Assembly: GCF_026262505.1 (NCBI RefSeq)
Contig: NC_067206.1
Span: 24,567,896 to 24,631,895, forward strand
From: Trichomonas vaginalis G3
Taxonomy: Eukaryota; Parabasalia; Trichomonadida; Trichomonadidae
Length of the DNA stretch: 64,000 bases
Direction: 5' to 3'
Numbering within the stretch: the first letter of the stretch is position 1; each line of letters begins with the position of its first letter. Under the pieces are notes generated by a model. It saw only the letters and a list, made by a program, of their open reading frames with translations. It was not told where the DNA came from and ran no database searches. Of the stretch, positions 13,939 through 57,772 are shown piece after piece. A program made the translations under genes and the position numbers.

Positions 13939-13993
13939 CCGTTTGTGTCCTGTCGGAAGGAAGAGTTCTTCCTGTCGGAAGGAAGGACTCGGA
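13939..13993. repeat. 22-bp repeat pair between divergent gene remnants
   Basis: TGTCGGAAGGAAG occurs at 13951 and 13973, exactly 22 bp apart. The sequence differs from the 22-bp arrays at 18481-18790 and 57381-57772, but the period and the position between the same two divergent genes are the same. Confidence 0.6.
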
Positions 13994-14110
13994 ATGCCAG
14001 AAGGATTTGACAAGACAATTTACCTTATAGAGCTACCTGAGCCATCTGACTTTCACAAAAGACCAAAAATAAACGCTTTACATGTATTTTTCAGCAACTT
14101 CGTCAAATAA
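13994..14110 (+). pseudogene. Truncated remnant of the gene at copy B 57773
   Basis: A 38-residue ORF starts MPEGFDKTIYLIELPEPSDF. The TIYLIEL and LPEPSDF parts match in DNA the copy B gene at 57773 (AIYLIEI..., with ACCTGAGCCATCTGA shared). It runs into the end of the 14689-14078 gene, so most of the original gene was lost by deletion. Confidence 0.5.
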
Positions 14111-14689
14111 TTTTATAGCTTTATCTATCTCATCTACTTCAAACGTTTCTTTACCTTTCGTGGGAGCACCATACATTTTCTCAAACTTTTCAAGTAGTTC
14201 TGTTTCAGCAGCTCTCATATCATTTACAAACACAACCTTGACTCTATTGACTGTAGAGTCATATCTTTGAGTTATATTATATGTTCTTCCTATCTTATAT
14301 CTCTTTGTATTGAAGTCCTTCGGTTTCTGAACGATGTAAAGTAAGCCTTCACTGCAACGTTCCGTATCGAATGAACCATATGTTATGAAATTATATCCAA
14401 CAACTGGGTCTAACCATAACAAAACTATTGGTATAAGACTTTTGTCAATGAGATATGCTGTAGTTCCACAGAATCTTACCGATATCATAAACTCAGGATT
14501 TCTTGTCAAAATTTTCTGAGTTGAAGCAATTCCAACCCAATGCCATGTTTTCTTTCCAGATGGTGTTAGAATGTCTGACAAAGAATATTTGTTGTATTTC
14601 TTTGAGTATCTTACGTTTAAATCACCTATTCTAACCATTTTGGTGTCATTGTCTATCTTTTTAACTGTTTCAAACTCAATGTTTGTCAT
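14078..14689 (-). CDS. KilA-N-like / T5orf172 (GIY-YIG-type) DNA-binding protein
   Basis: The 203-residue protein has an N-terminal part resembling KilA-N (KYSLSDILTPSGKKTWHWVG and IPIVLLWLDPVVGYNF, residues 30-105) and a C-terminal part of T5orf172 type (GLLYIVQ...YKIGRT...RY, residues 115-200), a domain distantly related to GIY-YIG nucleases. Such fusions are common in large DNA viruses and phages and usually bind DNA. It is present only in copy A, in the variable zone. Its leader (TATGTAAGAACAGGAA) is shared with the KilA-N gene at 18099. Confidence 0.7.
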   Translation of the reverse strand: MTNIEFETVKKIDNDTKMVRIGDLNVRYSKKYNKYSLSDILTPSGKKTWHWVGIASTQKILTRNPEFMISVRFCGTTAYLIDKSLIPIVLLWLDPVVGYNFITYGSFDTERCSEGLLYIVQKPKDFNTKRYKIGRTYNITQRYDSTVNRVKVVFVNDMRAAETELLEKFEKMYGAPTKGKETFEVDEIDKAIKLFDEVAEKYM

Positions 14690-14762
14690 TTCCTGTTCTT
14701 ACATACAAAATAAAAAAATAAAAAAAAATAAAACTAACTTTTTTTTTCTATCTTGTATAAAA

Positions 14763-16112
14763 GATATGATTTCAGGGATTTTTTTACGAAGAGTAAAAGT
14801 TCACTTCGTCAAAAAAATACAGTTATATCATGAAATTTGGTCATTTTTTCACGATTTTCATGTGTTTTAGGCGAGTAAGATTTTTTACTTACTCGCATTT
14901 TTTCACGATTTTCATGAGTTTTTTTTACGATTTTCGAATGGAATCTCTTTCCTCGATTTTTCGAGGGAAGCAAGCATATGAGGAAATTCATGATTTTTGG
15001 TCATTTTTTCACGATTTCAGGGATTTTTTTTACGAAGTGTAAAAGTTCTCTTCGTCAAAAAAATACAGTTATATCATGAAATTTGGTCATTTTTTCACGA
15101 TTTCAGGGATTTTTTTTACGAAGTGTAAAAGTTCTCTTCGTCAAAAAAATACAGTTATATCATGAAATTTGGTCATTTTTTCACGATTTCAGGGATTTTT
15201 TTTACGAAGTGTAAAAGTTCTCTTCGTCAAAAAAATACAGTTATATCATGAAATTTGGTCATTTTTTCACGATTTCAGGGATTTTTTTTACGAAGTGTAA
15301 AAGTTCTCTTCGTCAAAAAAATACAGTTATATCATGAAATTTGGTCATTTTTTCACGATTTCAGGGATTTTTTTTACGAAGTGTAAAAGTTCTCTTCGTC
15401 AAAAAAATACAGTTATATCATGAAATTTGGTCATTTTTTCACGATTTTCATGTGTTTTAGGCGAGTAAGATTTTTTACTTACTCGCATTTTTTCACGATT
15501 TTCATGAGTTTTTTTTACGATTTTCGAATGGAATCTCTTTCCTCGATTTTTCGAGGGAAGCAAGCATATGAGGAAATTCATGATTTTTGGTCATTTTTTC
15601 ACGATTTCAGGGATTTTTTTTACGAAGTGTAAAAGTTCTCTTCGTCAAAAAAATACAGTTATATCATGAAATTTGGTCATTTTTTCACGATTTTCATAGA
15701 GTTTTTTTACGAAGTGTAAAAGTTCTCTTCGTCAAAAAAATACAGTTATATCATGAAATTTGGTCATTTTTTCACGATTTTCATAGAGTTTTTTTACGAA
15801 GTGTAAAAGTTCTCTTCGTCAAAAAAATACAGTTATATCATGAAATTTGGTCATTTTTTCACGATTTCAGGGATTTTTTTTACGAAGTGTAAAAGTTCTC
15901 TTCGTCAAAAAAATACAGTTATATCATGAAATTTGGTCATTTTTTCACGATTTTCATAGAGTTTTTTTACGAAGTGTAAAAGTTCTCTTCGTCAAAAAAA
16001 TACAGTTATATCATGAAATTTGGTCATTTTTTCACGATTTCAGGGATTTTTTTTACGAAGTGTAAAAGTTTTCTTCGTCAAAAAAATACAGTTATATCAT
16101 GAAATTTGGTCA
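14763..16112. repeat. Tandem array of about 88-bp units
   Basis: About 12 copies of a unit built from TTTTTCACGATTTCAGGG, a T-run, ACGAAGTGTAAAAGTTCTCTTCGT (a dyad, ACGAAG...CTTCGT) and ACAGTTATATCATGAAATTTGG. A segment of about 250 bp (14812-15060) with GCGAGTAAG...CTTACTCGC and CGAGGGAAGCAAGCATATG recurs almost unchanged at 15402-15650. No gene is present; the short ORFs are products of the repeat. It ends against the iterated module at 16120. Confidence 0.85.
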
Positions 16113-16300
16113 TTTTTTTCAGCAAAAATATATTTTAGGTGTCACCAGGTCACTCGGTCACTCGGTCACTCGGTTAAATGAACTTCTCTGAAAAAGTGTG
16201 ACAACATGACATTTTGACAACAACACAGGAAATAGACTTCTTCGTAAATGTTTTGTCAAAACCTCATCGTCAATGAGCGTAAATCAGACAAAAATATATT
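16113..16300 (+). repeat. Iterated module 1: A+T core plus GGTCACTC repeats
   Basis: AAAAATATATTTTAGGTGTCACC is followed by three GGTCACTC units and, further on, TGTGACAACATGACATTTTGAC. It is the inverted partner of 17284-17380 and 18140-18335, so the 302-aa gene lies between inverted copies. Confidence 0.75.
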
Positions 16301-16314
16301 TCTACCATAAAGTT

Positions 16315-17223
16315 TCACAAGCGTTTTACATGGTAAACATTGTGAATTCGTGAAATCCTAAACAGTTTTGTAGCTTCTATTTCTTCTGTCAGTATGTCAA
16401 AAGTTTTCACAATGCCGAATGTTTCTTTATATTTCTTCTTGACGTCAGATAGAAGGAAATCGTCAGCAGTTGGATAGTTTTTGTTTAGAAATGTCAACAT
16501 GTCCATTTTATCTTCTGCTGGTTTCTCTACTTCTTTCTTTAAGTCAGCATAGTCGTTTCGCATACGTTCTATCTCTTTGACGGAGTAGTTATATTTCCTC
16601 ATTGCTGCTTTACATTTAGAACATTGTGGGTTCATTTTTGCATTGTACATTGAAACCTTACCTGCTAAAACAACTAAGGCGTAAATGGTTTTCTTTAACT
16701 CAAAGGCTGCTGGTTTTATCTGTTCATTCCATACCTTACCTCTTCTATCTTTATCTCTTATCTGCCATACACATTTTGCAACTAACGAAACAAAGTTGTC
16801 GTAGGTCTTAAATTCTTCAGATTTATATATGTCAATGAAATATACCATATCGCAGTCTTTGTCCATGACTTTGTGGTTGCAATGAAATCCAAGAAACTCA
16901 TAGTTAACCTTACGTATGAACTTCTTAATTTCAACTGAGTCAGTTGCTTTGACTTCTATTTCATCGAATTCAGGAATAGTGAGCTTTTGTTGTTGTATTT
17001 CAGGAAGTTTAGGTAGATGTTCCACCAGGTCCTGCATTTCATAAAGATATTGTTCATTTGTTTCATCTTTTGCAGTGCAATCTAAATCTCCTTGGAGAAG
17101 TTCTTGCTTTATCTTCTGGATTTCTGTTTCGAAAGTATATGAAGAAGGAATGAAGCTTTTCATTTCTACTAACATTGAAGTTGGGTTCATGACTAACGAG
17201 TTTGGTGCTGTTGTTGCTAACAT
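16315..17223 (-). CDS. 302-aa Cys-containing Maverick protein, function unknown
   Basis: The intact 302-residue protein starts MLATTAPNSLVMNPTS. A Cys/His cluster (FHCNHKVMDKDC, about residue 115) and a CSKCK pair (about residue 203) could bind a metal. Residues 208-235 look like a short coiled coil. It is conserved in copy B, where it is frameshifted. In both copies it is flanked by inverted iterated repeats of different sequence, an architecture that suggests the protein and its repeats belong together, for example as a repeat-binding replication factor. That link is inference. The leader TTGTAAGAAC resembles those of the KilA-N genes. Confidence 0.7.
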   Translation of the reverse strand: MLATTAPNSLVMNPTSMLVEMKSFIPSSYTFETEIQKIKQELLQGDLDCTAKDETNEQYLYEMQDLVEHLPKLPEIQQQKLTIPEFDEIEVKATDSVEIKKFIRKVNYEFLGFHCNHKVMDKDCDMVYFIDIYKSEEFKTYDNFVSLVAKCVWQIRDKDRRGKVWNEQIKPAAFELKKTIYALVVLAGKVSMYNAKMNPQCSKCKAAMRKYNYSVKEIERMRNDYADLKKEVEKPAEDKMDMLTFLNKNYPTADDFLLSDVKKKYKETFGIVKTFDILTEEIEATKLFRISRIHNVYHVKRL

Positions 17224-17240
17224 GTTCTTACAATAAAAAT

Positions 17241-17257
17241 AAAAAATATTTTTTTTT
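17241..17257 (-). promoter_or_regulatory. A-run/TATT/T-run box upstream of 302-aa gene
   Basis: On the minus strand, A-run, TATT, T-run, then TATTTTTATTGTAAGAAC to the ATG at 17223. The same arrangement precedes the copy B gene (56040-56060). Confidence 0.4.
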
Positions 17258-17283
17258 AAAAAACTAAAATATATTTTTTATTT

Positions 17284-17385
17284 CCTGTGTTGTTGTCAAA
17301 ATGTCATGTTGTCACCATTTTCAAAAAGATGTTAGTTGACCGAGTGACCGAGTGACCTGGTGACACCTAAAATATATTTTTGGTC
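17284..17385 (-). repeat. Iterated module 2 (direct partner of module 3)
   Basis: CCTGTGTTGTTGTCAAAATG, then ACCGAGTG repeats, CCTGGTGACACC and the TAAAATATATTTTTG core. It is nearly identical to 18210-18335 but has one ACCGAGTG unit fewer, and is inverted relative to module 1. The KilA-N gene sits between modules 2 and 3. Confidence 0.75.
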
Positions 17386-17436
17386 ATGGGCTATGCCCCG
17401 CCGCTTTGCGTCTTTTTGCCGAAAAAAATAGTTCAT

Positions 17437-18099
17437 TTACTCACAATATTTTTGTACAAAACGACCCCAAACTTTTAACTTCTTTTCTGCAGCTTCTAAT
17501 GAAATTTTAGCGAGTTCATATTCTCTAAATTCTCTCTTTAAATCTTCTTGTTCCCATTGGTCTAGTTCGTATGGAGAGTCTCTATAACCATAACATATCT
17601 CACGTTCATGTTCTATTTGTTTTTCGCACATTTTTCTAACTTCTTGTTCGAACAAAGGTTTAGCATTCTCTACTGTATCTTCAAGTTCTTCTTCATCTAA
17701 TTTCTCATGAACTTTCTTGTCTATGGAGTCCAGAATTTTTCCAACTGCTATACAATATTTTGGAGAAGCCCACATTGCTATATAGTTTAGAAGTCTTGGG
17801 TCTACATACGTTCCTCTAACCTGTCTGATTTCATCAGGAATTCCTGCATGAATTTTGTATAAAAACCAACCGCCGGAATTCCGGCGGTTGCTATATTCTT
17901 CACAAAATGCCTTATAATACTCTTCCCAGGACTTATTTTCCAACAACTTTCTAAAGTCTTTCCTAAACTGCTGACACATCTTTGTTGCATTTATATAACC
18001 ATCCTTGTCTCTACGTAAGACTTCAATACCGTTGTAAGTGCCTTTTGTGAATGTTTCGCCATTAGATTTGTTCGTGAACGTTTTTGCTTCGACTGACAT
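17437..18099 (-). CDS. KilA-N domain protein
   Basis: I prefer the ATG at 18099 (MSVEAKTFTNKSNG) over 18117, because the leader TATGTAAGAACAGAAATG then aligns with that of the 14689 gene. The KilA-N domain covers residues 20-130: DKDGYINATKMCQQF, KSWEEY and GTYVDPRLLNYIAMWASPKY are its hallmark parts. The last 90 residues are charged and helical. KilA-N proteins of large DNA viruses bind DNA. The gene is absent from the seen part of copy B and lies between two near-identical direct repeats, so it looks like a cassette. It contains a 24-bp perfect G+C-rich palindrome (17867-17890). Confidence 0.85.
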   Translation of the reverse strand: MSVEAKTFTNKSNGETFTKGTYNGIEVLRRDKDGYINATKMCQQFRKDFRKLLENKSWEEYYKAFCEEYSNRRNSGGWFLYKIHAGIPDEIRQVRGTYVDPRLLNYIAMWASPKYCIAVGKILDSIDKKVHEKLDEEELEDTVENAKPLFEQEVRKMCEKQIEHEREICYGYRDSPYELDQWEQEDLKREFREYELAKISLEAAEKKLKVWGRFVQKYCE

Positions 18100-18120
18100 T
18101 TCTGTTCTTACATACAAAAT

Positions 18121-18136
18121 AAAAAAATATTTTTTT
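18121..18136 (-). promoter_or_regulatory. A-run/TATT/T-run box upstream of KilA-N gene
   Basis: The box lies about 22 nt from the preferred start codon, separated by TATTTTGTATGTAAGAACAG. This supports the start at 18099. Confidence 0.4.
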
Positions 18137-18139
18137 AAA

Positions 18140-18425
18140 AAAAACTAAAATATATTTTTGTCTGATTTACGCTCATTACGATGAAATCATGACAAAACAT
18201 ATACGAAGAAGTTTATTTCCTGTGTTGTTGTCAAAATGTCATGTTGTCACCATTTTCAAAAAGATGTTAGTTGACCGAGTGACCGAGTGACCGAGTGACC
18301 TGGTGACACCTAAAAACCATCTAACCTAAAATATATTTTTGCCGAATTCAGCAACAAAATTCAAGAATTTTGGTTGAAAGAATACGATGGAGCCAAAAGT
18401 GGCTCGACCTCTTCACCTAAAATAT
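18140..18425 (-). repeat. Iterated module 3 with three A+T cores
   Basis: TAAAATATATTTTT occurs near 18148, 18325 and 18416, with ACCGAGTG units and CCTGGTGACACC between the first two. The 18150-18335 part is the inverted counterpart of module 1 (16120-16300). A small dyad GAGCCAAAAGTGGCTC lies at about 18392. Confidence 0.75.
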
Positions 18426-18476
18426 ATTTTTTCTATCTTAAGGAAATTCATGAGTTTTGGTTGAAAGAATACAAAT

Positions 18477-18790
18477 ATTGTTCTGAAGCAGTGCAAGTCT
18501 TGTTCTGAAACAGTACAAATATTGTCTTGAAACAGTGCAAATATTGTTCTGAAGCAGTGCAAATATTGTTCTGAAACAGTACAAATATTGTTCTGAAACA
18601 GTGCAAATATTGTTCTGAAACAGAAAATTTTTCTCACAAATTGAGAGCTTTTACGGGAAATTTGTTCTGAAAAAGTACAAGTCTTGTTCTGAAAAAGTAC
18701 AAGTATTGTTCTGAAAAAGTACAAGTATTGTTCTGAAGCAGTGCAAGTATTGTTCTGAAACAGTGCAAGTATTGTTCTGAAGCAGTGCAA
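18477..18790. repeat. 22-bp tandem array (13 units) with central dyad
   Basis: TTCTGA recurs at 18481, 18503, 18547, 18569, 18591, 18613, then 18665, 18687, 18709, 18731, 18753 and 18775, exactly 22 bp apart within each block (one variant unit sits at 18525). The unit is about ATTGTTCTGAAACAGTGCAA. The interruption at 18625-18660 holds an imperfect dyad (CTCACAAATTGAGAG). The last unit runs into an ATG (18790) whose next bases resemble the start of the copy B gene at 57773, so the array probably once had that gene beside it. Confidence 0.85.
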
Positions 18791-18810
18791 TGGACAACAT
18801 CGAGCCACAT

Positions 18811-19671
18811 TCAATACTTTTTCAGCACTTTTCCGTAGTTGTATATGAAAGACAATTCGAGATAAAAGTCATAGTACAATGGTATAATATGCTGCACACC
18901 GTTTGTTGTGAACCAAACTTGAAAGTCAGAGAAACTGTTACTAGGTGGTTCGTAGAATTTAGAAGCAAAGTCATAAAAGTCCTTACCGATACAAAGAAAA
19001 CTGTTGTTGCTTGAACTGAAACTTGCATGACATATAACATTTTGAGGGTCAAACACGTTTCTATAAACTGTCAAATCTGCTGGTGGAAGTATAAATTTAA
19101 ATGGACCATCTGGTGGTAATGGTTCGTTCTGGTTTAGTAACCGAAGAAATTGTGCCCAAGAACGTTTGTCTACTCCCCAATATAAAAAATCTGTATCTCT
19201 TGGAGGGTTAATTTCAATCTTTTGAAATGAAACGGTGGAGTTCATCTTGTCATATTCTAGTTTCAGATAGTATGTTCCATTTAGTAAAGAGTCGTATTTT
19301 TCTTGAAATTCCCAGTAGTATTTGTTCATTTGAGTTTGAAAGTCATTTAGAGTTTTCTCAAGACTTTCGTCTGAACGAATTGTAAAGATTTTCATTTCGT
19401 CAAATTTTTCTATTAGACCATCAGAACCTTTATACTGCCCATGAAAATATACTGCGAACATAAAAGCGTTAGTTCTATTTGAAAACAAAACTCTTCTAAA
19501 TCCTATTGCCTTTGCATCTGAAGGACTTTGAAGCCAACGAATTGGATAGTCAAACCTGTAAGCTCCGGATGAAATTTCTTCATCTGAAATATTCCTACCA
19601 GCATTTGTAAAGATATAGTCTAACGGTTTTGTATCTGCTACTTTTGTTCTTTGTTTTTCAACCTGAAGCAT
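18811..19671 (-). CDS. 286-aa Maverick protein, paralogue of the 25363 protein
   Basis: The intact protein starts MLQVEKQRTKVADTKPLDY and is clearly related over its full length to the plus-strand protein at 25363 (shared AIGFRR, FYEPPS, SDFQVWFTT and FYLELSFIYNY). Its function is not recognised. The shared C-terminal motif is the best kept part. It lies between the 22-bp array and the polymerase gene in copy A and is absent at that place in copy B, so it is part of the variable cargo, perhaps derived by duplication from the backbone gene at 25363. Confidence 0.7.
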   Translation of the reverse strand: MLQVEKQRTKVADTKPLDYIFTNAGRNISDEEISSGAYRFDYPIRWLQSPSDAKAIGFRRVLFSNRTNAFMFAVYFHGQYKGSDGLIEKFDEMKIFTIRSDESLEKTLNDFQTQMNKYYWEFQEKYDSLLNGTYYLKLEYDKMNSTVSFQKIEINPPRDTDFLYWGVDKRSWAQFLRLLNQNEPLPPDGPFKFILPPADLTVYRNVFDPQNVICHASFSSSNNSFLCIGKDFYDFASKFYEPPSNSFSDFQVWFTTNGVQHIIPLYYDFYLELSFIYNYGKVLKKY

Positions 19672-19725
19672 TTAATATATGTAAAAATATACTGTTTTAA
19701 AAACGTTTTTACTTCATGCAATGTT

Positions 19726-21876
19726 TTACTTCATGCAATGTTTTATTTCTGTGCCGTCTTCAAGTATGCCCCAGTACTTACGCTTGGAGAGGACATGAAC
19801 TTCGGAAAATACCTTATCTAGCTTAAAACAGCCCATCTTTTCACCGACCATTCCCATTTCAATGAGTTTGTTGTATCCTTCTTCGTTCGTCATGAGTGCG
19901 TCAATGTTCTCATAGTAAACCTTCACTTTGGATTTGACTTCGGAGAAGAATTTGTTGTAGTTGTCAAGGACTGCCTTTGCGAACTGAGGGTAAGACCAAT
20001 GTTCGACAATAGGTTTTAATGTGGTTACTAAGCCACTTTGACCTTGAGTAAATTCGTACTTCAAAACAAAAGGAGAAAACCTTTCAACAAAGTTGTCGAC
20101 CTTCTCATAGTGTTTACTCTTCATCGCTTGAGGTTTCTTAATGGAATATCCCCATGTCGAATTCATAAGCAATTTGAGTGTCATTGCAAGTTTGGGGTTT
20201 GAAGCTTTCCTAATATCATACAGTTGTTGTATGACTTTTCCAACTGTATAGTTCCTTCCCGGGAACTCACCATCTTCGTTTGGAATTCCAGTCGGAATAT
20301 ATTGGACAAACCTCATGTATGCAGCGTTAAGGTCGACATAGTATATTTTTTCATCTGAGTCGAACTTGTCGCAACCTATTGGTCCAGTTTGTGGAAATTC
20401 AAGTGAGTCTCTTATCTTCTGAGAAACTTCTCCTGTTATCTCATAAACATCGTCGAAGCAACCTGTTTCATATAAAACCTTCTGACCTAACTCAGATGCT
20501 CTCCAATACAATTTGACGTCAATTGGATGTCTCAATGGAAGTTTGTTTATAGCATCTTGAAGTTCTTGCAACCTCATTGGAAGTTCTTCTGGTTCAGGTT
20601 GGTATCCGAACAATCCAACTCCTTTTGGAACTGTGTACTTCTTTTGTGCTAGAACTTTGTCTGGAACAACTTTTGGTCTTGCTAACAATGAAAAGTTTGT
20701 TTCGTCTTTGGTACAAAAGTTTCTGTCAGCTTGTCATCTGGAATTGGTTCCAACAAACCTTTCTCGAAAAGAATGTTAACAGCTCTGACAATGTTGCACT
20801 TGCCTTTTCCGAACAATGGGTTTGTAAGACTTTCGTTCAACATGAAGTGGTTGTGGACAAGTACAATCTTCAACCATGGTAAGTCTTTGTCAACAACATA
20901 GTCGTCATGTGAAGAACCTTTAGCTGTAGGTATGTTGACTCGGATATTCACATTTGCCAACGGTGCAATTTTTGCCAATTGACCTCTGAGAATGTACCTT
21001 GTCTTCACACATGACTCAAGATACTTCATCTTCTCATCTGTAACAAGACCAGAGTTCCTGAGACATGTAAGAATACAAGGTTCGTTGACAATTTTTCAAT
21101 TGAATTGTAAATTCCATACCTTGTCAAGTCAATGTCAGACTTATTTCTGAAGGGGAAGTATCCAGCATGTTGTCTGACTGCTTGAGGGTTAGGTTGGTAC
21201 CATTCGAACTTGACACTTGCAATTCCTTCAATTGCATTCAAAATGTCTGAGTCGGAGTCAACCATTTGTTCTCTCTTTGTAGTCTTGAAAGCGTCAAGAA
21301 GTTGTGCGGCTGTTGTGACATTGCCATGTGCATAGTAAATGTGACCATCCAAATCTGTTATGGTCAATCTGAGATTGTGTCCTTTCTTATTTCCGTCTTG
21401 AATTGCAGCAAGTACACCCATGAAGCCTTCTTTGTTCTTTCCTTCGTCAAAGTTTACTGTAAAGGTTCGACCAGATGTAATTTGACTTCTAACTTCACGG
21501 TACTTTTCATATGCATATCTTGTTCTTTCCATGGGAGCATGTGTGTCTTCACCTTTTCTTTTTTCCTTCTCAAAGGATGCAATTGTTCGTCATGTTTCCA
21601 GTAGAATCTGGCAAAGCCGTCGTGTCCTTCAACTTGAGGTTCACTAACATCGAAAGGCATGTCCATAAGACGTTCTTCTTCTAACCTCTCTAGTCTGTTT
21701 GGATAATTTGCACGTGCTGTTTCCAAATCCATTTCGTAGCGAAGACCAGACAATTTGTCATAGACTTTTATGAGTCTTCCCTTCCTATATTTAAAATTCT
21801 TCGAAACTCTCCAACCATATCTTTGTAACTCTGCTTTTATTCTAGCAGATTTTCTATCCATTCTATATGGGGGCAT
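19726..21876 (-). pseudogene. Family B DNA polymerase gene, frameshifted (copy A)
   Basis: The gene would encode about 716 residues. Motif A is YYVDLNAAYM, motif B is KLLMNSTWGY, motif C is YYENIDALMT and the final KRKYWG element is present. Upstream, EPCILTCLRNSGL...HNHFML matches the N-terminal region of Polinton/viral protein-primed polymerases. Compared with copy B, single-base losses lie near 21560, 21095 and 20709. I see no exonuclease motifs between HNHFML and motif A, where the domain would be expected. The product would replicate the element, probably by protein priming. Confidence 0.85.
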
Positions 21877-21889
21877 TTTTATAAAAATA

Positions 21890-21907
21890 AAAAAATATTT
21901 TTTTTCC
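21890..21907 (-). promoter_or_regulatory. A-run/TATT/T-run box upstream of polymerase gene
   Basis: On the minus strand: A8TATTT..., then TATTTTTATAAAA and the polymerase ATG, nearly the same as the leader of the helicase gene at 10777. It is also present in copy B at about 62401-62416. Confidence 0.4.
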
Positions 21908-21908
21908 T

Positions 21909-22493: not shown

Positions 22494-22512
22494 TTCATCT
22501 CAGTAAAAAATT

Positions 22513-23105: not shown

Positions 23106-24064
23106 ATGACGAATTCAAACAAGGACCCCCATGTTTCTAAGGCAACAAAGAAAGCACTCATGGTAAAAATCTTTAGTTCAACACCAAATGCTTGGTTTAT
23201 GGATATCTTGGAAAACATTCCGAGGTATAGAGAAGATGGACCACCATACTGGCTAATATTTGTTGGTCAAAACACAAGATACTGTGAAGCCATACCATTA
23301 TGGTCCAAAAATATTTTAGATGTGAAAACTGCTTTGACAATATTCGTTGACAAATACCATCCAACAAAACTGACATCTGACTATGAAAGTTCTTTCAAAT
23401 CAGATGATGTAAAAAACTATCTGCGTTCAAAAAATGTAAACCAATATTTCATTGTCGACCAAAACCATTCTGCTCTTGGTGTCATTGACGGTTGTATAAA
23501 AATGTTAAGAGACTTAAACCAACCACAAGGTGGTGAAGCAAATGAAATGTCATATGACGACAAGTATAGACACTTCTCCATGGCAAAGATGAGACAAGTT
23601 TTAAATATTTACAATAGCCGTAAACAAAAAGGTTTGGGAAACCACTCCCCTGAAGAAATGAAAAACAACCCTGACTTAGAGAAAGACTATATATTTAACA
23701 ATTTAGTCAAAAGAGACAAACAAGAAAGAATGCCGGGCTTCAAACTTCAGAAAGGTGACAAAGTAAAAATAGAAATACCTAAACGCGACCCATATGAAAA
23801 TACTATTGACTATGACAACAATGGAACCCGACAGGTACTCACATTCGTGTTCGTAAAAATAGAAGAAAGTATACAAGAGAATATTATGAAGTTTTAGGCA
23901 AACATGGCAAAATGTACACACTGCAAGCAGAAGATAAAACTACTATTGTCAGACCTCGTTTCAAACTTGTTAAGGTTCAAGGTGGTATACTTTCAAAGAC
24001 AGTTCCTAACAAATATAAGACAACTCCTGACGAATATGCTAAAGAAGTTGAAAATGACGACTAA
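23106..24064 (+). pseudogene. Retroviral-type integrase, frameshifted near the C-terminus
   Basis: The rve core begins almost at once: WFMDILE gives the first Asp (about residue 32), LTSDYES the second, and HSALGVIDGC stands where the Glu of DD35E is expected. The spacing from the second Asp is 35 residues, but the third acid is Asp, also in copy B. No N-terminal HHCC zinc finger is visible. The C-terminal part has KLQKGDKVKIEIP. A base change near 23820 shifts the frame, and the likely original frame continues to a stop at 24064 with an SH3-like end (MYTLQAEDK). The role is insertion of the element. Confidence 0.8.
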
Positions 24065-25344
24065 GCATTTCTATACCATGCGTAAACTGTCATGTAAGGT
24101 GGCATGTAGTCTTTACTTTGTCCCGTTGTTTGCGTATATCCTGAAACCAAATGTGTATGGCTTCCTCCTCCCTGAGTGTCATCCCAGTAACAATTTATAG
24201 CAAACTGAACGTCGTCTTTAACATCATATCCTTTACCTTTTGTCATTCCTGTCCAATCCCAATATCTATGCTTATGCCAACCTTCTAGAGATGTAGTTAA
24301 ATCTACGTAGTGACTGTGTGCAGGTAAATTTTCACCTGAAATCGTTTTACTTCCACCTGTTTCCTTTGAAGAGTTTGCACAATACAAAAACCTGTCGACT
24401 ATTTGAGTCCAAGTTCCAAAACCAAGTACTACTTCTGGTCTGGTAGAGTTCATTGAAACATATAATGAGCCAACCGGGTAAATAAGATTCGGCAAAATTT
24501 GTTTAAGCACCTTGAGTTCCTGTCTTAGATGCATAATACTATTGTCATTAGATATCAAAGTATCTACAAGACTTGTTGCCGGTGGTATTGTTGGACCTTT
24601 ACTTGGCAAGGTTGTGTTTAGTGTAATATCATCTGCTGTAAAAGTTGTAAAACTTGTATGTGTATGAGTCTTATTTGCTTTCTTCTCTAACTCATCGTTA
24701 ACATATGTTTTATCCGCTTTGTCATCTAACTTTTCTTGAAGTTCATCTACGTCATAGATGTTATGTGTATGATGTTTTTGTGGGTATGTTCTTTCTGTCC
24801 ATGCGAAAATATAGTCTTTTGTTGCATCTACATATCCAGCTATCCATGTCGAGTCTGCTTTTGTATTCCTTAACTCTGTAACACCTTTCTCAAGCTCTTT
24901 CAACTGTTGTCCATCTTCCATTAAACCTCTGGTATGACTTGAAACCGTTTGTGCCAACATATCTACAGTTTCTTTGTCAGCTTTCTTTTCAACATCCTCT
25001 TTTGTTGCATATGTTGCATCTGCTCTGTCATGTTCTTCTTGAACTTTTTCAATGACATACTCTTTGTCAGCTTTGTTGTCAACATCTGCTTTCAAAAGAA
25101 GTTCATTTATAGGCTTCTCGTTTAAAGTTCCTTTTGTTGGATTTATACAGACAGTATGGTTCTTATTGTCTTGAAACAGAAACTCATCTGTCATTGGGTT
25201 CATTGTCAGTTTTAAGTTTCCTTCTTTCAATGACTCAGATATCTTAGAATAGTTTGAAAAGTTTGTTGTGTTCTTATTTAGAGCTTGTATAATGAGTTGT
25301 CGGTTGTGTTGTATTTCTCTCATAGACGCTGTTTCTTTCGACAT
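24061..25344 (-). CDS. Phage-tail-fibre-like protein
   Basis: The intact protein has 427 residues. Residues 85-250 carry repeated KADKxYV-type heptads (NKADKEYVIEKV, DKADKTYVNDEL), a trimeric coiled-coil pattern. The C-terminal 140 residues look like bacteriophage fibre/collar tips: IYPVGSLYVSMNSTRPEVV, FGTWTQIVDRFLYC, ETGGSKTISGENLPAHSHY, GGGSHTH and a final PPYMTVYAWYRNA. In phages this tip binds the host surface. In a Maverick it suggests that particles may have a receptor-binding spike. It converges with the integrase gene, overlapping by 4 bp. Confidence 0.8.
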   Translation of the reverse strand: MSKETASMREIQHNRQLIIQALNKNTTNFSNYSKISESLKEGNLKLTMNPMTDEFLFQDNKNHTVCINPTKGTLNEKPINELLLKADVDNKADKEYVIEKVQEEHDRADATYATKEDVEKKADKETVDMLAQTVSSHTRGLMEDGQQLKELEKGVTELRNTKADSTWIAGYVDATKDYIFAWTERTYPQKHHTHNIYDVDELQEKLDDKADKTYVNDELEKKANKTHTHTSFTTFTADDITLNTTLPSKGPTIPPATSLVDTLISNDNSIMHLRQELKVLKQILPNLIYPVGSLYVSMNSTRPEVVLGFGTWTQIVDRFLYCANSSKETGGSKTISGENLPAHSHYVDLTTSLEGWHKHRYWDWTGMTKGKGYDVKDDVQFAINCYWDDTQGGGSHTHLVSGYTQTTGQSKDYMPPYMTVYAWYRNA

Positions 25345-49663: not shown

Positions 49664-49681
49664 CTTTTTATTCTAAGTAAA

Positions 49682-50264: not shown

Positions 50265-50270
50265 GTAAAA

Positions 50271-51059: not shown

Positions 51060-51087
51060 AAAAAATATTTTTTTTATTTTTATAAAA

Positions 51088-52320
51088 ATGTACAGAATAG
51101 ACGTTTCAGATTTTTATGACTTCCAAGCGTTCAGAAATATGTGTCATTTAGAGACTATAACAAAGCAGTCGAGAATTTGAAACGTTTAGTCATTTATGTT
51201 GACTCTGCCCCAGAATGTTATGTCATGAAAGAATGGGATGTTGTCTTTAACAAACCAAGAGCAACCATAGTTTCAGAACAAGAATGTAGACAGAAACTTA
51301 AGAAAATAAAAGTTGTACAGGTTGGCATGAAGATGTTAGATGCTTGGGATATCTTATTGTCAAAGTTAGAAGATTTTTCAGTTCGTGGTATAAAGTTCTA
51401 TACACCATCTCCAAACTTCTATTCTATCTTCACTGGATATAAATATGAACAAGTAGAATGGAAAGAAAATATTATAGAAGCTTGGTTAGACCATGTCAAA
51501 GAAATTATATGCAATGGAAACGAAAGAGTCTATGAGTATATCTTATGTTGGTTTGCAAACATCTTACAACATCCAAGTGCTAAAATGAAACTGCTCTCAT
51601 TATAATTGGAAAACAAGGAACAGGTAAGAACACATTCTTTACAGATATCTTATGCAAACTGTTAAGGCTATTCGAATCCGAATATGACAAAACTTAGAAA
51701 ACATCTGTGGCAAGTTTAACTCCTCAATAGAGAATATGAAACTTATAGTATGTAACGAACTTCAAAGTATAGATACAACAAAAGTTTTGAACTCAGATGC
51801 TTTGAAGAGTCTTATAACAGACAAAGTTGGAGTTGTTGAAAGAAAATATAAAGACCAAAGAGTTTGTGAAAATGTTGCAAATTTCATTATGGTTTCAAAC
51901 AATACTGTTCCGATGAAGTTAGAAAGTTCTGACAGAAGATATGTAGTTGTCAGAACGTCAGAAGCTCATATGCAAGATACAGAATATTTTGACGCTTTGT
52001 CAGAAACTTTGACATCTGACTTTTACAACCACTTGTTCTCATATTTCATGACATTAGATATTTCTAAGTTCAATCCAAGACAAATTCCATATACCGAAGA
52101 GAGACAAACATTGTTAGAAGCAAACAAGAGTGTATATGAACTGTTTATAGATGAAAACGACTTTGAGTGTTTAGATGAAAGGTCATTGTACGATGAATAT
52201 AAACAATATTGCCAAGAGTATGGTTATATGACAGCGTCTAAACGAACATTCTTGGCAAATGTCAAAAATCTTTTAGATGTTCAGAACGGCGTATATACAA
52301 AGAAAAATTTTTCTGAGTAA
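51088..52320 (+). pseudogene. Copy B version of the superfamily 3 helicase, broken
   Basis: It matches 10777-12010. Frameshifts lie near 51144 (one C missing), near 51583 and around 51665-51690. The 51736-52320 part with the FIMVSNN motif is intact. The break sites differ from those in copy A. Confidence 0.75.
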
Positions 52321-52351
52321 TTTAAAAAAATATTTTTTTTATTTTATTGAA

Positions 52352-52932
52352 ATGTACGCTGAGTTTGTTGAGAAGACGTTGGGAAACTTGTTTGTTAGAT
52401 GAGAAATATGAAATTCACTGTTGTGAGTCATTGAAGTCAGAAACAAAAAGACAAAAAGAGTTTTAAGCGAATGGGAGCGAAATGACGGATATGCTGATAT
52501 GAAGATGGGTGGAAAACACTATCTTAAACATGTTGTCATTGCAACTCATTTTATACTGAATCCTAACAATTTACCTTTTGTAGACCATATAAACCGATAA
52601 GAAACGACAATAGACTTGAAAACTTACGTTGGGTCACTGGTTCTGAAAACAATAAGAACAAAAGCAAATTTGGAGATATAGTATTCGAATTTGTCGACGA
52701 ACTAGAAGATGAAGCAATTGAAATTACAGACTATGGCAAGCATACGTTTGAGTTTTACTACTACAGCGAAGAACAGGACTCTTTCTACTTTTATACCGGC
52801 GTAAACTATAGGAAATTACAAGTATGTTTTACTAAGGCAGACTATGCTTATGTATACGCTAGAGATACAGATGGAAAATACGTTAGACTATTTCTTAACA
52901 AATTCAAGAAGCTATATGGCATACCATTTTAA
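52352..52932 (+). pseudogene. HNH endonuclease gene inserted in copy B, broken
   Basis: It starts at ATG 52352 after its own A-run/TATT box and ends at 52932, with several frameshifts. Readable pieces include NPNNLPFVDHIN and ENLRWVTGSENN, the His-Asn signature of HNH homing-type nucleases, and a C-terminal part of about 90 residues ending LFLNKFKKLYGIPF. Copy A has no gene here: the same flanks are joined directly. So this is a gain in B or a loss in A. Confidence 0.7.
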
Positions 52933-52973
52933 AACGTTTTTAAAAAAAAATATTTTTTTATCCGATAGAAAAG

Positions 52974-53390
52974 ATGACGAAATATATTTCAGTCAACAAG
53001 TACATGACAGAAGTCAAAGAAGAACTAGACCCATTCATATATTTGAATGTTTACTTCTACCATTTTGAAAAGTCTACTTTGACAAAGTTTGGAACATCGA
53101 ACCTGTTAAGTTTGCTATTGTGACTAAAAATGGTGCGAAATTTGAAGACTTAGACATAGAGGTTTGTTAGCAGTCAAAGAAAATTTTGACAGAAGGTTCT
53201 CAAACCTTAAAGAAGGCAAAGCATACAAACTTGTTATACCTTATGAACCAAAGAAAGCAGACGACTATGAATATTATGAGTCTAAGATAGTTGAAGTTCA
53301 AGGTAAATTGGGTAAAAAGATTTTAGAGTCTAAGCCAGTGTTTGCCCTAAAGAGGAAGAGAACATTGACATTGACCCAGAAATGTTCTAA
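52974..53390 (+). pseudogene. Copy B version of the 139-aa protein, broken
   Basis: It matches 12047-12466, with frameshifts near 53075, 53160 and 53345. The leader TATCCGATAGAAAAG is identical to that of copy A. Confidence 0.65.
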
Positions 53391-53406
53391 AAATAAAATT
53401 TTATTT

Positions 53407-53858
53407 TTACATGTCATATCTCACCTTCTCTGGAACTGGTTCAGGTTCTTTCTTCTCTTCTACTTTCTTCTCTTTCTTTTCTCTTTCTTCTTCTTCTTCT
53501 CTGGTGGAGTTATGTCAACTTCTCAGAACCATATTTTTGTAAAGTTCTTTGTCCTTTAATAGCTCTTCTATTCTGTTTTCTATTTCATCTTCAAGAACAG
53601 CGCATGTGCCTTCTTTGCATTCTAAGAACTTTTGTTGGACTTCATCTTTCCAATCGGCGTCATCTCTGTCAACAAGTCTGTCATTGACAAATTTTAAGAC
53701 TGCTCTTTGTAATGTTTTATGGTTCTTGTCATTTCCCAGAAACAGAACTTTAGAACAAATTCACCTTTCTTGTTTACACTATGTAAGATTTTATGGTCGA
53801 CAGAAGTTTTAGAGTCAAAAAGCTTGTCTCGAATATAGATAGCGAAATCGCTAGACAT
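53407..53858 (-). pseudogene. Copy B version of the 148-aa Lys/Glu-tailed protein, broken
   Basis: The start (MSSDFAIYIRDKLFDSK) is kept; frameshifts occur near 53730, 53540 and in the Lys/Glu tail. It is divergent from the ATPase gene across the same 36-bp spacer. Confidence 0.65.
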
Positions 53859-53894
53859 TTTCAAAAAGATAAAAATTTTAATTTTTCTAAAAAT

Positions 53895-54769
53895 ATGTTA
53901 GAAAAAAAGTTTGCTGACATTGACAAGAAATTTGAGAATGTTTTAAACAAGAACAAGAGGAAGTTAGAAAATGCTCAGATAAAACCCATACATGACAAGT
54001 TCTTATTTGCTCAGAATGGTATAACAGGTTAATCGCACCACCTGGTCGGGTAAGACTTTCACTTATCTTAAAATGGCTGCACAACAACAAGAGACTAGAT
54101 GAGAAGAACCCATTCTATGAGTTAGTTGTCATTTGTAGTACTTCTGGTCAATTCGATCAAACCGTAAATTCGTTCAAAGATATTATAAAGAAGTCTAAGT
54201 TAGTATGTATAAAAGACTCTGAGTTGTTAGATTGGATAAAGAAGTACCAAAGAAGAGTTTTGAAGTATAATGCTATAAATGAGTATATAAATTCGAAGTT
54301 TAAAGACCCAAATGAGGAAATGCAGAGAATATTAGACAAACACCACTTCAGAAACAAACAGAAAGAGATAGAATACATTTCGAAGAAATTGCAATCTTAC
54401 GATTGGAAGACTTACCCTCACAGATGTCTTCTTATCTTAGATGACTTTGCTTCTCATCCTTTGTTAAAGAATAGAGAACAAGACATGTGTCGAATTCTTA
54501 AGAAGCTCAGACACTTTAACATCTCAGTTGTCATTTGTGTACAGACAGCCAAGAGTTTAAGTAAGGATGTAAAGAGAATACTTACTGACATTGTACTTTT
54601 CCCCGGATTGTCCGAAGACGATTTCATGGAACTTATGAAAGAGTCCATGGCAGGTAAGTTTGACAGACATGAACTATGGGAGAAGTACAAAGTCATACAA
54701 GACCCTCATACTTCTTTCAGAATTCATATCTACGCAAACAAAGTTCAAATTGTAAAAAGTCAAGCGTAA
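53895..54769 (+). pseudogene. Copy B version of the packaging ATPase, broken at Walker A
   Basis: It matches 12966-13841. Bases are missing near 54030 and 54045, on either side of the Walker A codons, and one is gained near 54090. The second half (54224-54769) with Walker B (LLILDDFA) is open. Confidence 0.75.
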
Positions 54770-55119
54770 AAATAAAGAGTGCAATTTACTCTGCTTGTTT
54801 GAAGTTGTCAAAATACTCTGTTATTTTTCACTGTTTTCATAGAGTTTTGGCGACTGGGGTTTCTTCCCTACTCGCTGTTCTTCTTTCGGTTTTCCGAGGG
54901 AAGCAAGCATATGAGGAAATTCATGAAATTTCATACGGAATTCAATAAAAATAATGTTTATGTTAGAATGTTAGATCTAACATGTTTTCTAACATGTTTT
55001 CTAACATGGTCTAAAACATACAAAACTCATGAAATTTCATACGGAATTCAGCAAAAATAATGTTTATGTTAGAATGTTAGATCTAACATGTTTTCTAACA
55101 TGTTTTCTAACATAACTAT
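54770..55119. repeat. Iterated module (GTTAGA type) downstream of the 302-aa gene, copy B
   Basis: Two units of about 95 bp contain AAAAATAATGTTTATGTTAG, then ATGTTAGATCTAACATG and TTTTCTAACATG repeats (54950-55118). Upstream lies CGAGGGAAGCAAGCATATGAGG (54886), also present in the copy A array at 14956 and 15546. The dyads are in inverted orientation to those at 56095-56290. Confidence 0.75.
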
Positions 55120-56033
55120 TTACAAGCGTTTTACATGGTATATGTTGCGATGGTTCATGACTCTAAACAATTTCGTGGCTTCAATTTCTTCTTTTAGTAC
55201 ATCGAATGTTTTAACGATACCGAAAGTTTCTTTATACTTCTTCTTGACGTCAGATAGAAGGAAATCGTCAGCTGTTGGATAGTTTTTGTTTAGAAATGTC
55301 AACATGTCCATTTTATCTTCTGCTGGTTTCTCTGCTTCTTTCTTTAAATCTGCATAGTCGTTTCGCATACGTTCTATCTCTTTGACGGAGTAGTTATATT
55401 TCCTCATTGCTGCTTTACATTTAGAACATTGTGGGTTCATTTTTGCGTTATATTCTGAAACCTTACCTGCTAAAACAACTAAGGCGTCAATGGTTTTCTT
55501 CATCTCGAACATAGCGGGTTTATTTGTTCGTTCCATACCTTACCCCTACTATCTTTATCTCTTATTTCCCAAACACATTTTGCAACTAATGAAACAAAGT
55601 TGTCGTAGGTCTTAAATTCTTCGGATTTGTAAAGGTCAGAGATGTTCTTATATACCATGTCGCAATCTTTGTCCATAACCTTATGGTTGCAATGAAAACC
55701 AAGGAATTCATAATTTACCTTTCGTATGAACTTCTTTATTTCTACTGAGTCAGTTGCTTTGACTTCTATTTCGTCAAATTCGGGAATGGTTAGTTTTTGT
55801 TGTTGGATTTCAGGCAATTTGGGTAAATGGTCAATAATGTCCTGCATTTCATAAAGATACTGTTCATTTGTTTCATCTTTCGCACTACAGTCTAAATTAC
55901 TTGTTAAAAGTTCTTGCTTTATCTTCTGGATTTTTGTTTCGAAAGTATATGAAGAAGGAATGAAGCTTTTCATCTCTACTAACATTGAAGTTGGGTTCAT
56001 GACTAACGAGTTTGGTGCTGTTGTTGCTAACAT
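55120..56033 (-). pseudogene. Copy B version of the 302-aa Cys-containing protein, frameshifted
   Basis: Two overlapping open parts (56033-55500 and 55536-55120) match 17223-16315 with more amino-acid differences than most backbone genes. One base is missing near 55520. The CSKCK pair is kept. It is flanked on both sides by GTTAGA-type dyads in inverted orientation. Confidence 0.7.
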
Positions 56034-56089
56034 GTTCTTACAATAAAAATAAAAAATATTTTTTTAAAAAAACCAACTTTATTTTTTAT

Positions 56090-56290
56090 TTCGGGAAAAT
56101 TCATGAAAATTCAAGAGTTTTAGACCATGTTAGAAAACGTGTTAGAAAACATGTTAGAACTAACATTCTAACATAAATTATATTTTTGGTGTAAATTTCA
56201 TGATTTTCGAGAGTTTTAGACCATGTTAGAAAACGTGTTAGAAAACATGTTAGAACTAACATTCTAACATAAATTATATTTTTGGTGTAA
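56090..56290. repeat. Iterated module (GTTAGA type) upstream of the 302-aa gene, copy B
   Basis: Two units of about 97 bp: TTTTAGACCATGTTAGAAAAC, GTGTTAGAAAACATGTTAG, AACTAACATTCTAACATAA and TTATATTTTTGG. The arrangement mirrors modules 1-3 of copy A with a different iterated word. Confidence 0.75.
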
Positions 56291-56305
56291 AAGTGTTATT
56301 TTTTC

Positions 56306-56500
56306 ATGTCCGAAGACTCGAAGGTGCAACACTTCCAAAATACCGACGAACTCAGAAGAGCAGCATGGCAGTATGTTCTTGACAACTTCTTTGAGTTCTC
56401 CAGGTACACCTTGGAAAATGCTGAAGAACTCCGACACAGAGAATTTGGAGAAATTGCACTCCAATACTACATTGACAAACAAAGGGTAAACAAAGGGTAA
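56306..56500 (+). CDS. 64-aa cargo protein of copy B
   Basis: It starts MSEDSKVQHFQNTDELRRA; acidic and helical with aromatic residues, no known domain. The stop lies in a small tandem repeat (AAAGGGTAAAC three times, 56481-56511), so the end may vary. It begins directly after the GTTAGA module. Absent from copy A. Confidence 0.5.
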   Translation: MSEDSKVQHFQNTDELRRAAWQYVLDNFFEFSRYTLENAEELRHREFGEIALQYYIDKQRVNKG

Positions 56501-56552
56501 ACAAAGGGTAAAATAAGACTAAAAACTTAACGTTTAAAAAGTGACATTTTTA

Positions 56553-56753
56553 ATGAGCTCCGAGTCACCGAGAAAACTTGGTCAGATGTTAGCAGCTTAC
56601 TTCCCTGAGGAAGATGGAAGCGTTACATACGTAAGGTTCAAAAACAACGAACCTGGAATTGCGTACCAAATTCGCAATTACATGACCATGGAAGAGTACG
56701 AAAGGTTCCTACAAGAGAAACCAGCTCTAAACAACTCAGAAAAGAAAGAATAA
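56553..56753 (+). CDS. 66-aa cargo protein of copy B
   Basis: I prefer ATG 56553 (MSSESPRKLGQMLAAYF) to 56541, because related cargo genes start with a short Met-Ser head. The product has a possible helix, then a beta-like part (SVTYVRFKNNEPGIAYQI) and a charged tail. The family is not recognised. Absent from copy A. Confidence 0.5.
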   Translation: MSSESPRKLGQMLAAYFPEEDGSVTYVRFKNNEPGIAYQIRNYMTMEEYERFLQEKPALNNSEKKE

Positions 56754-56781
56754 AAAGTTTAACTCGTAATTGTTTATTTTT

Positions 56782-57378
56782 TTACTTGTATGGGCAAGCT
56801 GCAAGAATGAAGTCGACTATCTCAGTCTTTGTCTTGACCAGTTGGACTGCTCTTGCGAGTACGTCTGTTTTGCGGTCTCCAGCTGGTGTCTGACCTTCGT
56901 AATTGCGCATGTTCTTGAGAGCTCCAACTGTAAATGGTTGTAGGATGAAGAGTCTCTCAGACTGCTTGAGGTAGTCGTCACGGTCACGAACCGAATCTGT
57001 GGTACGAGTCGAATTGGTCGACCTTAGGGAAGAGACTGAAAGCCTGTCATCTTCCATAGGGGCTGTGGCATACTCTTTGCGTAAACGGTTCAGACCTTCT
57101 TCGAACTCTTGGTCTCTCTTGGATTGAGATTGGAATTGGAATTGGGGTGGAGGGTTTGACATGAACATCCAAGGGTTAGGGCAGTAAGGCATAGGCTGAG
57201 GAGGGTAGTTCGGGAAGCCTTGAGGAGGTATTTGGTAGTAATTTGGAAATTGGTAGTAATTCGGAGGTACTTGTTGGAACTGAGGTACTTGTTGGAACTG
57301 AGGTTGCTGAGGTGCAGGGGCTGGTGCTTTAGGTTCCTCTGGTTGGGATATGGGCTCGGTTGGTGGTACGTCGGACAT
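56782..57378 (-). CDS. Pro/Gln/Tyr-rich cargo protein of copy B
   Basis: I chose ATG 57378 (MSDVPPTEPISQPEEPKAPA); the longer ORF upstream is only translated 22-bp repeat. The 198-residue protein has a Pro/Gln/Tyr/Asn-rich half (FPNYYQIPPQGFPNYPPQP), a charged link and a C-terminal helical part (ERLFILQPFTVGALKNM). A remnant of its start occurs in copy A at 13938. It faces the 57773 gene across the 22-bp array. The function is unknown. Confidence 0.65.
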   Translation of the reverse strand: MSDVPPTEPISQPEEPKAPAPAPQQPQFQQVPQFQQVPPNYYQFPNYYQIPPQGFPNYPPQPMPYCPNPWMFMSNPPPQFQFQSQSKRDQEFEEGLNRLRKEYATAPMEDDRLSVSSLRSTNSTRTTDSVRDRDDYLKQSERLFILQPFTVGALKNMRNYEGQTPAGDRKTDVLARAVQLVKTKTEIVDFILAACPYK

Positions 57379-57772
57379 TGTCTTGAAACAATAAAAGACT
57401 TGTCTTGAAACAATAAAAGACTTGTCTTGAAACAATAAAAGACTTGTCTTGAAAAAGTAAAAGACTTGTCTTGAAAAAGTAAAAGACTTGTCTTGAAAAA
57501 GTAAAAGACTTGTCTTGAAAAAGTAAAAGACTTGTCTTGAAAAAGTACGGGTATCGTCTGAAATCAAGACCACTGTTCTCAAATTTGAGAACTTTACACC
57601 AAAAAATTTCTTGAAAAATAACGGGTCTTGTCTTGAAAAAGTAAAAGACTTGTCTTGAAAAAGTAAAAGACTTGTCTTGAAAAAGTAAAAGACTTGTCTT
57701 GAAAAAGTAAAAGACTCGTCTTGAAAAAGTAAAAGACTCGTCTTGAAAAAGTAAAAGACTCGTCTTGAAACA
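57379..57772. repeat. 22-bp tandem array (16 units) between divergent genes
   Basis: TCTTGA recurs every 22 bp from 57381 to 57535 (8 units) and, after an interruption, from 57609 to 57763 (8 units). The unit is about GACTTGTCTTGAAAAAGTAA. The interruption carries an 18-bp perfect palindrome GTTCTCAAATTTGAGAAC (about 57573-57590). The array reaches both flanking start codons. Its end units (AAACAATAAAAG) differ from the middle ones. Confidence 0.9.

What the first reader, a model, noticed from the sequence alone, without database searches (positions are those of the whole stretch)
13939..57772. Three 22-bp-period arrays of unrelated sequence beside the same divergent gene pair
Exact 22-bp spacing is seen at 13951/13973, 18481-18775 and 57381-57763. 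In copy B the array fills the whole space between the starts of a Pro-rich gene (57378, minus) and a 121-aa gene (57773, plus). Remnants of the same two gene starts flank the short pair in copy A, and the large copy A array ends at an ATG followed by bases resembling the same plus-strand gene. Units inside an array are nearly identical, but arrays differ in sequence. Both large arrays have an interruption with a dyad related to TTCTCAAATTTGAGAA. A 22-bp step is about two DNA turns, so a protein lattice on one DNA face is possible. This looks like a fast-evolving regulatory or replication array and its cargo genes.
Basis: partly seen in the sequence, partly recalled or inferred. Interest (0 to 1): 0.75.

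Follow-up and report, generated by a model that had tools for sequence, protein, structure and literature searches.

The report
Phased repeat arrays in Trichomonas Mavericks
The virus-like Maverick elements of the parasite Trichomonas vaginalis carry, between the same two facing-away genes, long runs of a 21- or 22-base unit that keeps its spacing but comes in at least four different sequences; this looks like a landing strip for a protein, though no binding has been shown.

Summary
The window is Trichomonas vaginalis, with two Maverick/Polinton copies. Array B (57378-57772) fills the gap between a Pro-rich gene (minus) and a 121-aa gene (plus). In the same genome, 100 of 100 sampled relatives of the 121-aa gene have such an array, its last unit within 33 bases of the gene start. 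Units are 22 bp in three types and 21 bp in a fourth; each array has one type and a type-specific centre (1,905 centre matches genome-wide). Array B is type I, large array A is type II (17 of 22 bases shared), the short pair is a type IV remnant; 'unrelated' is only partly right. Ten arrays picked blind to the gene end at its start in 6. The 121-aa gene is a mosaic; its basic, fastest-changing block tracks array type, but among 17 discordant loci the array follows that block in only 8, so protein-array matching is not shown. Best reading: a helically phased binding array controlling the divergent pair, possibly read by the 121-aa protein. An iteron/oriP-like maintenance element and an inert minisatellite remain open.

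The parts
56782..57378 (-). Pro-rich gene (198 aa), left partner of the divergent pair
   Evidence: ORF; 114 homologues, those with a source name shown are T. vaginalis; no Pfam family at E 0.1 and no PHROG at E 1; AF2 model low confidence (pLDDT 48)
57379..57554 (.). Array B, left arm: eight 22-bp units, type I (the eighth diverges at its end)
57555..57628 (.). Array B centre; perfect 18-bp palindrome at 57575-57592
   Evidence: a 26-bp centre pattern occurs 191 times genome-wide (up to 2 mismatches), reversed control 0
57629..57772 (.). Array B, right arm: 22-bp units ending at the start codon of the 121-aa gene
57773..58138 (+). 121-aa gene, right partner; mosaic family; model with five helices and a C-terminal beta hairpin (pLDDT 83.9, pTM 0.79)
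18472..18789 (.). Array A, type II, 22-bp units in two arms
18624..18660 (.). Array A centre (TCTCA...TGAGA)
   Evidence: a 30-bp centre pattern occurs 215 times genome-wide (up to 2 mismatches), reversed control 0
18790..18807 (+). Truncated start of a type II 121-aa gene (MDNIEP), then a junction into the 3' part of the DUF7777 gene 18811-19671 (minus)
   Evidence: same truncation at L133
13938..13996 (.). Two-unit remnant of a type IV array between broken starts of the Pro-rich gene (ATG 13938, minus) and the 121-aa gene (ATG 13994, plus)
   Evidence: period alone not significant

Best explanation
The arrays are cis-acting protein-binding arrays of T. vaginalis Mavericks. Each fills the gap between two divergent genes, with two arms of 21- or 22-bp units (two helical turns) around a centre that in types I and IV holds a perfect palindrome. 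A protein bound once per unit would sit on one face of the DNA, bind cooperatively, and set transcription of both genes, whose start codons lie at the outer edges of the array. The likeliest reader is the 121-aa protein next door (autoregulation), with its basic, fast-changing block (residues 17-40) giving sequence preference, so that array types would behave like specificity groups. Shown: position, period, two-arm plan, four unit types, near-total absence of mixed arrays, mosaicism, block-specific protein change. Inferred: binding, cooperativity, transcription control, and the identity of the binder.
For: Array at the gene start in 100 of 100 loci: last unit anchor 6-33 bases before the start, at one fixed distance in 32 of 32 type I, 7 of 7 type III, 25 of 30 type II and 27 of 31 type IV loci. 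Steps: type I 458 of 503 are 22, type II 400 of 445 are 22, type III 69 of 83 are 21, type IV 93 of 166 are 22. Period is kept while sequence changes. Arm lengths vary (0-36 full units) yet both arms are present in 58 of 59 distinct type I-III arrays measured. Block 2 (residues 17-39) has the highest pN/pS of eight blocks (0.83; the block nearest the array 0.06) and, among columns 19-37, association with array type mostly 0.91-1.0 (lower at 25, 35, 36), against 0.23-0.74 for columns 11-18, which lie nearer to the array. Its net charge is +3 to +5.3 between acidic blocks; two later blocks are also basic, +2 to +3. In 7 of 7 loci picked for a type II start and a type III block 2, the array is type III. 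The last 40 bases before the 121-aa ATG lack the host initiator TCAYW (motif recalled) in 100 of 100 loci.
Confidence: 0.42

Rival explanations
1. Iteron- or oriP-like maintenance element: the units are sites for an initiator or tether acting on an episomal stage (replication start, copy control or segregation), with the centre as opening or dyad element.
For: Iterons are 17-22 bp, 22 bp in R6K and pPS10, seven in R6K, and cooperativity is lost when two iterons are moved apart by half a turn (passages of PMC4980987); EBNA1 sites in the DS element are 21 bp apart (passage of PMC3798644). Two arms around a palindromic centre.
Against: Polintons are thought to replicate by protein priming from their ends (recalled), so no internal origin is needed. 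No initiator-like domain was found in either neighbour by Pfam or PHROGs.
Confidence: 0.2
2. Inert minisatellite: slippage and unequal exchange expand whatever lies in a non-coding gap, and copying of the element spreads it.
For: In type II, units within an arm are more alike than units of different loci (0.950 against 0.868); the difference is small in type I (0.934, 0.927) and absent in type III (0.974, 0.977). L053 has 37 unit matches, those read being nearly identical. Arrays persist beside broken genes.
Against: Does not explain why diverged units keep 21-22 bp, why one type-specific centre is matched in 32 of 32 type I, 27 of 30 type II, 5 of 7 type III and 31 of 31 type IV loci, or why array edges lie at the two start codons.
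Confidence: 0.2
3. Enhancer or promoter array for a host transcription factor.
For: On the 121-aa side the array lacks the host initiator in 100 of 100 loci and a TTTTA box in 94 of 100 (found in 0 of 32 type I, 1 of 30 type II, 5 of 7 type III, 0 of 31 type IV); a TTTTTA-like box precedes many other Maverick genes of the window by eye. Some other activator would be needed.
Against: Four diverged unit types would have to be read by host factors; no host motif was recognised, but only the recalled initiator and the TTTTA box were tested.
Confidence: 0.12
4. The array is coding (repeats read on the minus strand into the Pro-rich gene).
For: In B one minus frame runs open from 57783 through the array into the Pro-rich gene (ORF 56782-57783).
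Against: The type I unit has no stop triplet on that strand, so openness is expected. Over array A two of the three minus frames contain stops, and a 22-bp unit shifts the frame at each step.
Confidence: 0.03

Closest known systems
Iteron arrays of plasmids (R6K, pPS10, RK2, F)
   Same: Tandem direct repeats of 17-22 bp, bound cooperatively in a phase-dependent way by a plasmid-encoded protein (passages of PMC4980987)
   Different: Here in an integrating eukaryotic virus-like element, two arms round a centre, abutting two start codons, four unit types; no Rep-like protein recognised; binding not shown
EBV oriP (family of repeats plus dyad symmetry, EBNA1)
   Same: Tandem sites plus a dyad element; DS sites 21 bp apart (passage of PMC3798644)
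   Different: No EBNA1-like protein recognised; the array lies between divergent genes; maintenance function untested
ParR/parC of plasmid R1 (recalled)
   Same: Two blocks of direct repeats on either side of a promoter region, read by a small neighbouring protein
   Different: R1 repeats are 11 bp (recalled); no ParM-like partner was sought; the 121-aa model has no fold match
Phage immunity operators and stoperators (recalled)
   Same: Many sites, specificity groups, mosaic repressor genes
   Different: Sites here are clustered in tandem in one place; repressor function is unproven and the match to the protein is not strict

Membership tests
Maverick/Polinton element (host of the array) | A32-like packaging ATPase | tested here: met
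   12864-13841: Pox_A32 PF04665, 28.9 bits, cut-off 22.8
Maverick/Polinton element (host of the array) | Retroviral-type (rve) integrase | tested here: inconclusive
   23106-23897: PF00665 E 4.4e-7, 30.5 bits, just under the cut-off 32.6
Maverick/Polinton element (host of the array) | Protein-primed family B polymerase | tested here: inconclusive
Maverick/Polinton element (host of the array) | Terminal inverted repeats | not tested
   Inverted repeats of 60 bp or more were listed only for 43400-64000; element ends were not defined
Iteron-type origin | Tandem direct repeats of about 17-22 bp with fixed spacing | tested here: met
   Spacing counts
Iteron-type origin | Cognate winged-helix Rep initiator encoded nearby | tested here: inconclusive
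   No Pfam, PHROG or PDB sequence match for the 121-aa protein; fold search without a match
Iteron-type origin | Replication depends on the repeats | not testable with these tools
   Needs an experiment
EBV oriP-like element | Repeats plus dyad element bound by one protein that tethers the episome | not testable with these tools
   Repeats and palindromic centre present; binding unknown
Immunity operator system | Strict match between site type and repressor specificity | tested here: not met
   Strong but not strict: 95 of 96 loci typed by pattern match block 2, 99 of 100 with the other four read by eye, in a sample biased by the queries; but only 8 of 17 discordant loci do
Simple minisatellite | No constraint on unit length or position | tested here: not met
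   21-22 bp in four unit types, at the start of the same gene in 100 of 100 loci chosen by that gene

The most novel reading that the evidence does not exclude
T. vaginalis Mavericks have an immunity- or incompatibility-type recognition system: well over a thousand phased arrays (1,905 centre matches) in at least four specificity groups, with 21- and 22-bp alphabets, read by a mosaic 121-aa protein of unrecognised fold whose basic block is reshuffled by recombination, so that resident copies can silence, or be silenced by, copies of the same group.
Probability: 0.17. Interest if true: 0.85.

Novelty: new variant of a known kind. Interest (0 to 1): 0.6.

Why it matters
Mavericks make up about 73 Mb of this parasite's genome (passage of PMC7845603), and how thousands of copies stay silent and compatible is open. 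A phased array with conserved geometry and changing sequence, tied to one gene pair, points to a specific DNA-protein partnership that can be tested with one small purified protein and four short DNAs. It would be an iteron-like array in a eukaryotic integrating virus-like element.

Tried and rejected

Errors and dropped rows: the twelve minus-strand loci among L009-L038 were read in the wrong orientation; corrected, and later counts use the corrected set. L078 was dropped from the gene-DNA tests because its conserved DEA codons differ (99 of 100 kept, 98 with an open frame, 73 distinct). Four of 100 loci were not typed for block 2 by the patterns; by eye they agree with their arrays. In one search the 121-aa test used 39 of 50 proteins and the Pro-rich test 79 of 114 (length limits). 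In one search, 59 distinct type I-III arrays with one matched centre were used; type IV was not measured. A draft of this report gave 7 of 10 blind arrays with the gene start; the recount gives 6.

Literature: full-text searches of the open PMC library (seen as listings); passages seen from PMC7845603, PMC12695648, PMC10120064, PMC4980987, PMC3798644, PMC5366954. What I saw of them does not describe the arrays; no paper was read whole, and subscription papers, including Pritham 2007, were not seen.
Full report
Where it is. The window is G000:C4:24567896-24631895 of a 180.9-Mb, 86-contig genome. Protein homologues with a source name are Trichomonas vaginalis G3, so the window is T. vaginalis.

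The observation. Array B runs from 57378 to 57772, between the starts of a 198-aa Pro-rich gene (minus) and a 121-aa gene (plus). It has eight units, a 74-bp centre with the 18-bp palindrome at 57575-57592, and further units up to the ATG. Array A (18472-18789) has the same plan and ends at ATG 18790 and six codons of a truncated relative of the 121-aa gene. Autocorrelation at 22 bp is 0.83 (B) and 0.78 (A); the best value over periods 5-59 in any of 500 dinucleotide shuffles was 0.41 and 0.40. The short pair at 13951 is not significant alone (0.66; shuffles reach 0.90) but matches what I call type IV, with broken gene starts of that type on both sides.

How general it is. A search of the same genome with the 121-aa protein scored 150 of 1,287 candidates, 62-100% identical; a search with a type IV relative (P0022) scored 150 of 1,821. 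I read the DNA of 100 of these loci: L009-L078 from the first search (L013 is the window's own copy B) and L079-L108 from the second. All 100 have an array whose last unit anchor lies 6-33 bases before the gene start. Four unit types occur: I (32 loci, 22 bp), II (30, 22 bp), III (7, 21 bp) and IV (31, 22 bp). Steps between units are exactly 22 in 458 of 503 (I), 400 of 445 (II) and 93 of 166 (IV, less regular), and exactly 21 in 69 of 83 (III). Each type has its own centre: exactly one was matched in 32 of 32 type I, 27 of 30 type II, 5 of 7 type III and 31 of 31 type IV loci; one type II and two type III loci have several, and in two type II loci none was matched. Genome-wide, with up to two mismatches, centre patterns match 191, 215, 389 and 1,110 times (I-IV; 1,905 in all; some arrays hold several), and the reversed control patterns 0 each. 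Mixing of types inside an array was seen in one of 100 loci: L039 (type II) has two units with type I-like stretches; L073 and L075 also have a type IV-like match in front of the array. The patterns used are strict, so faint mixing could be missed.

A check blind to the gene. Ten type II arrays were fetched by their centre alone. In 6 of 10 the array ends at the type II gene start; three (L131, L134, L135) end elsewhere, and L130 runs past the fetched stretch. Only L132 was intact over the stretch read; L127 has an in-frame stop, the other four are truncated or shifted, and L133 shows the same truncation as array A of the window. So arrays outlive their gene in many copies.

Are the unit types related? 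I and II share 17 of 22 positions (0 of 400 shuffles). II and III (opposite strands) share 15 of 21 (p 0.013), III and IV 14 of 21 (p 0.043); the other three pairs give p 0.08 to 0.63. With six comparisons the middle two are marginal. Period is thus better kept than sequence. Units are more alike within an arm than between loci in type II (0.950 against 0.868), hardly so in type I (0.934, 0.927) and not in type III (0.974, 0.977).

The neighbouring protein. The 121-aa family is known here only from T. vaginalis or unnamed ENA entries, has no Pfam, PHROG or PDB sequence match, and no relative was confirmed in the viral or prokaryote contigs scanned. AlphaFold2 gives a model of pLDDT 83.9 and pTM 0.79 with five helices and a C-terminal hairpin, without a fold match. 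The alignment shows discrete alternative blocks in many combinations. In DNA, 73 distinct alleles have 155 informative sites; 5,994 of 11,935 site pairs fail the four-gamete test, and the Hudson-Kaplan minimum is 37 recombination events in 330 bp, if repeated mutation is neglected. The Pro-rich family is mosaic as well, so this is a property of the element pool.

Does the protein read the array? In favour: block 2 (residues 17-39) has the highest pN/pS of eight blocks (0.83; the block between it and the array 0.06); columns 19-37 track array type mostly at 0.91-1.0 while columns 11-18, nearer to the array, reach only 0.23-0.74; and block 2 is basic (+3 to +5.3) between acidic blocks, though two later blocks are basic too. 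In seven of seven loci picked for a type II start and a type III block 2 the array is type III (L114's block begins like type IV). Against: the loci were picked by protein queries, which biases the association; columns 45 and 48 are as strongly associated; and targeted recombinants include type II arrays with block 2 wholly or partly IV (L116-L118), type III with IV (L119, L120) and type IV with III (L074, L121, L122, L125). Over the 17 discordant loci the array agrees with block 2 in 8 (L039, L109-L115), with the gene start in 7, with neither in 2; four type II loci with hybrid II/III starts are left out of this count. Linkage plus recombination explains this as well as matching does. The binder is therefore open.

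Mechanism. Both start codons lie at the edges of the array, so any promoter of the pair must lie in it or in the genes. On the 121-aa side none of 100 loci has the host initiator motif (recalled as TCAYW) in the last 40 bases; a TTTTA box is present in 0 of 32, 1 of 30, 5 of 7 and 0 of 31 loci of types I-IV, while by eye a TTTTTA-like box precedes many other Maverick genes of the window. Phase-dependent cooperativity is known for plasmid iterons: moving two iterons apart by half a turn abolishes it (PMC4980987). I therefore favour a cooperative binding array that sets transcription of the pair (0.42), over a maintenance element (0.2), an inert minisatellite (0.2) and a host-factor array (0.12). 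No transcript or binding data were available, and published RNA-seq finds nearly all Maverick ORFs silent.

Novelty. Seven full-text searches of the open PMC library and the passages seen do not mention such arrays; subscription papers could not be seen. It works like known phased arrays but no partner protein is shown, so it is filed as a new variant, not as a member of the iteron, oriP or immunity families.

Noticed in passing
54947-55113 and 56117-56291; 16148-16174, about 17335-17370 and 18272-18310: The DUF3839 gene in copy B lies between inverted repeats (91 nt, 89% complementary); in copy A similar GGTCACTC / GAGTGACC stretches flank the DUF3839 and KilA-N genes. They look like exchangeable gene cassettes between ATPase and array.
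   Followed up: no
upstream of many Maverick genes in the window, e.g. 10777, 12047, 21876 (minus), 62387 (minus): A T-rich box like TTTTTA lies shortly before many start codons (by eye); a possible Maverick promoter element that the array genes mostly lack.
   Followed up: partly
12 of the 30 loci L079-L108 (L085, L086, L088, L092, L097-L103, L107), about codon 16-17 of the 121-aa gene; also L117, L118, L127: The same in-frame TAA (YLI*) recurs in type IV copies and in recombinants with type II arrays, so a broken allele is being spread by copying or recombination.
   Followed up: no
24061-25344 (minus): A phage-tail-like protein: Gp10 C-terminal domain (E 2.5e-24) and a phage tail repeat, in a eukaryotic element.
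   Followed up: no
14988-16118: An 86-bp tandem array of about 13 copies in copy A, unlike the 22-bp arrays.
   Followed up: no
L053, L061, L078: Extreme arrays: 37 unit matches (L053), four centres (L061) and six centres (L078) in one array.
   Followed up: partly
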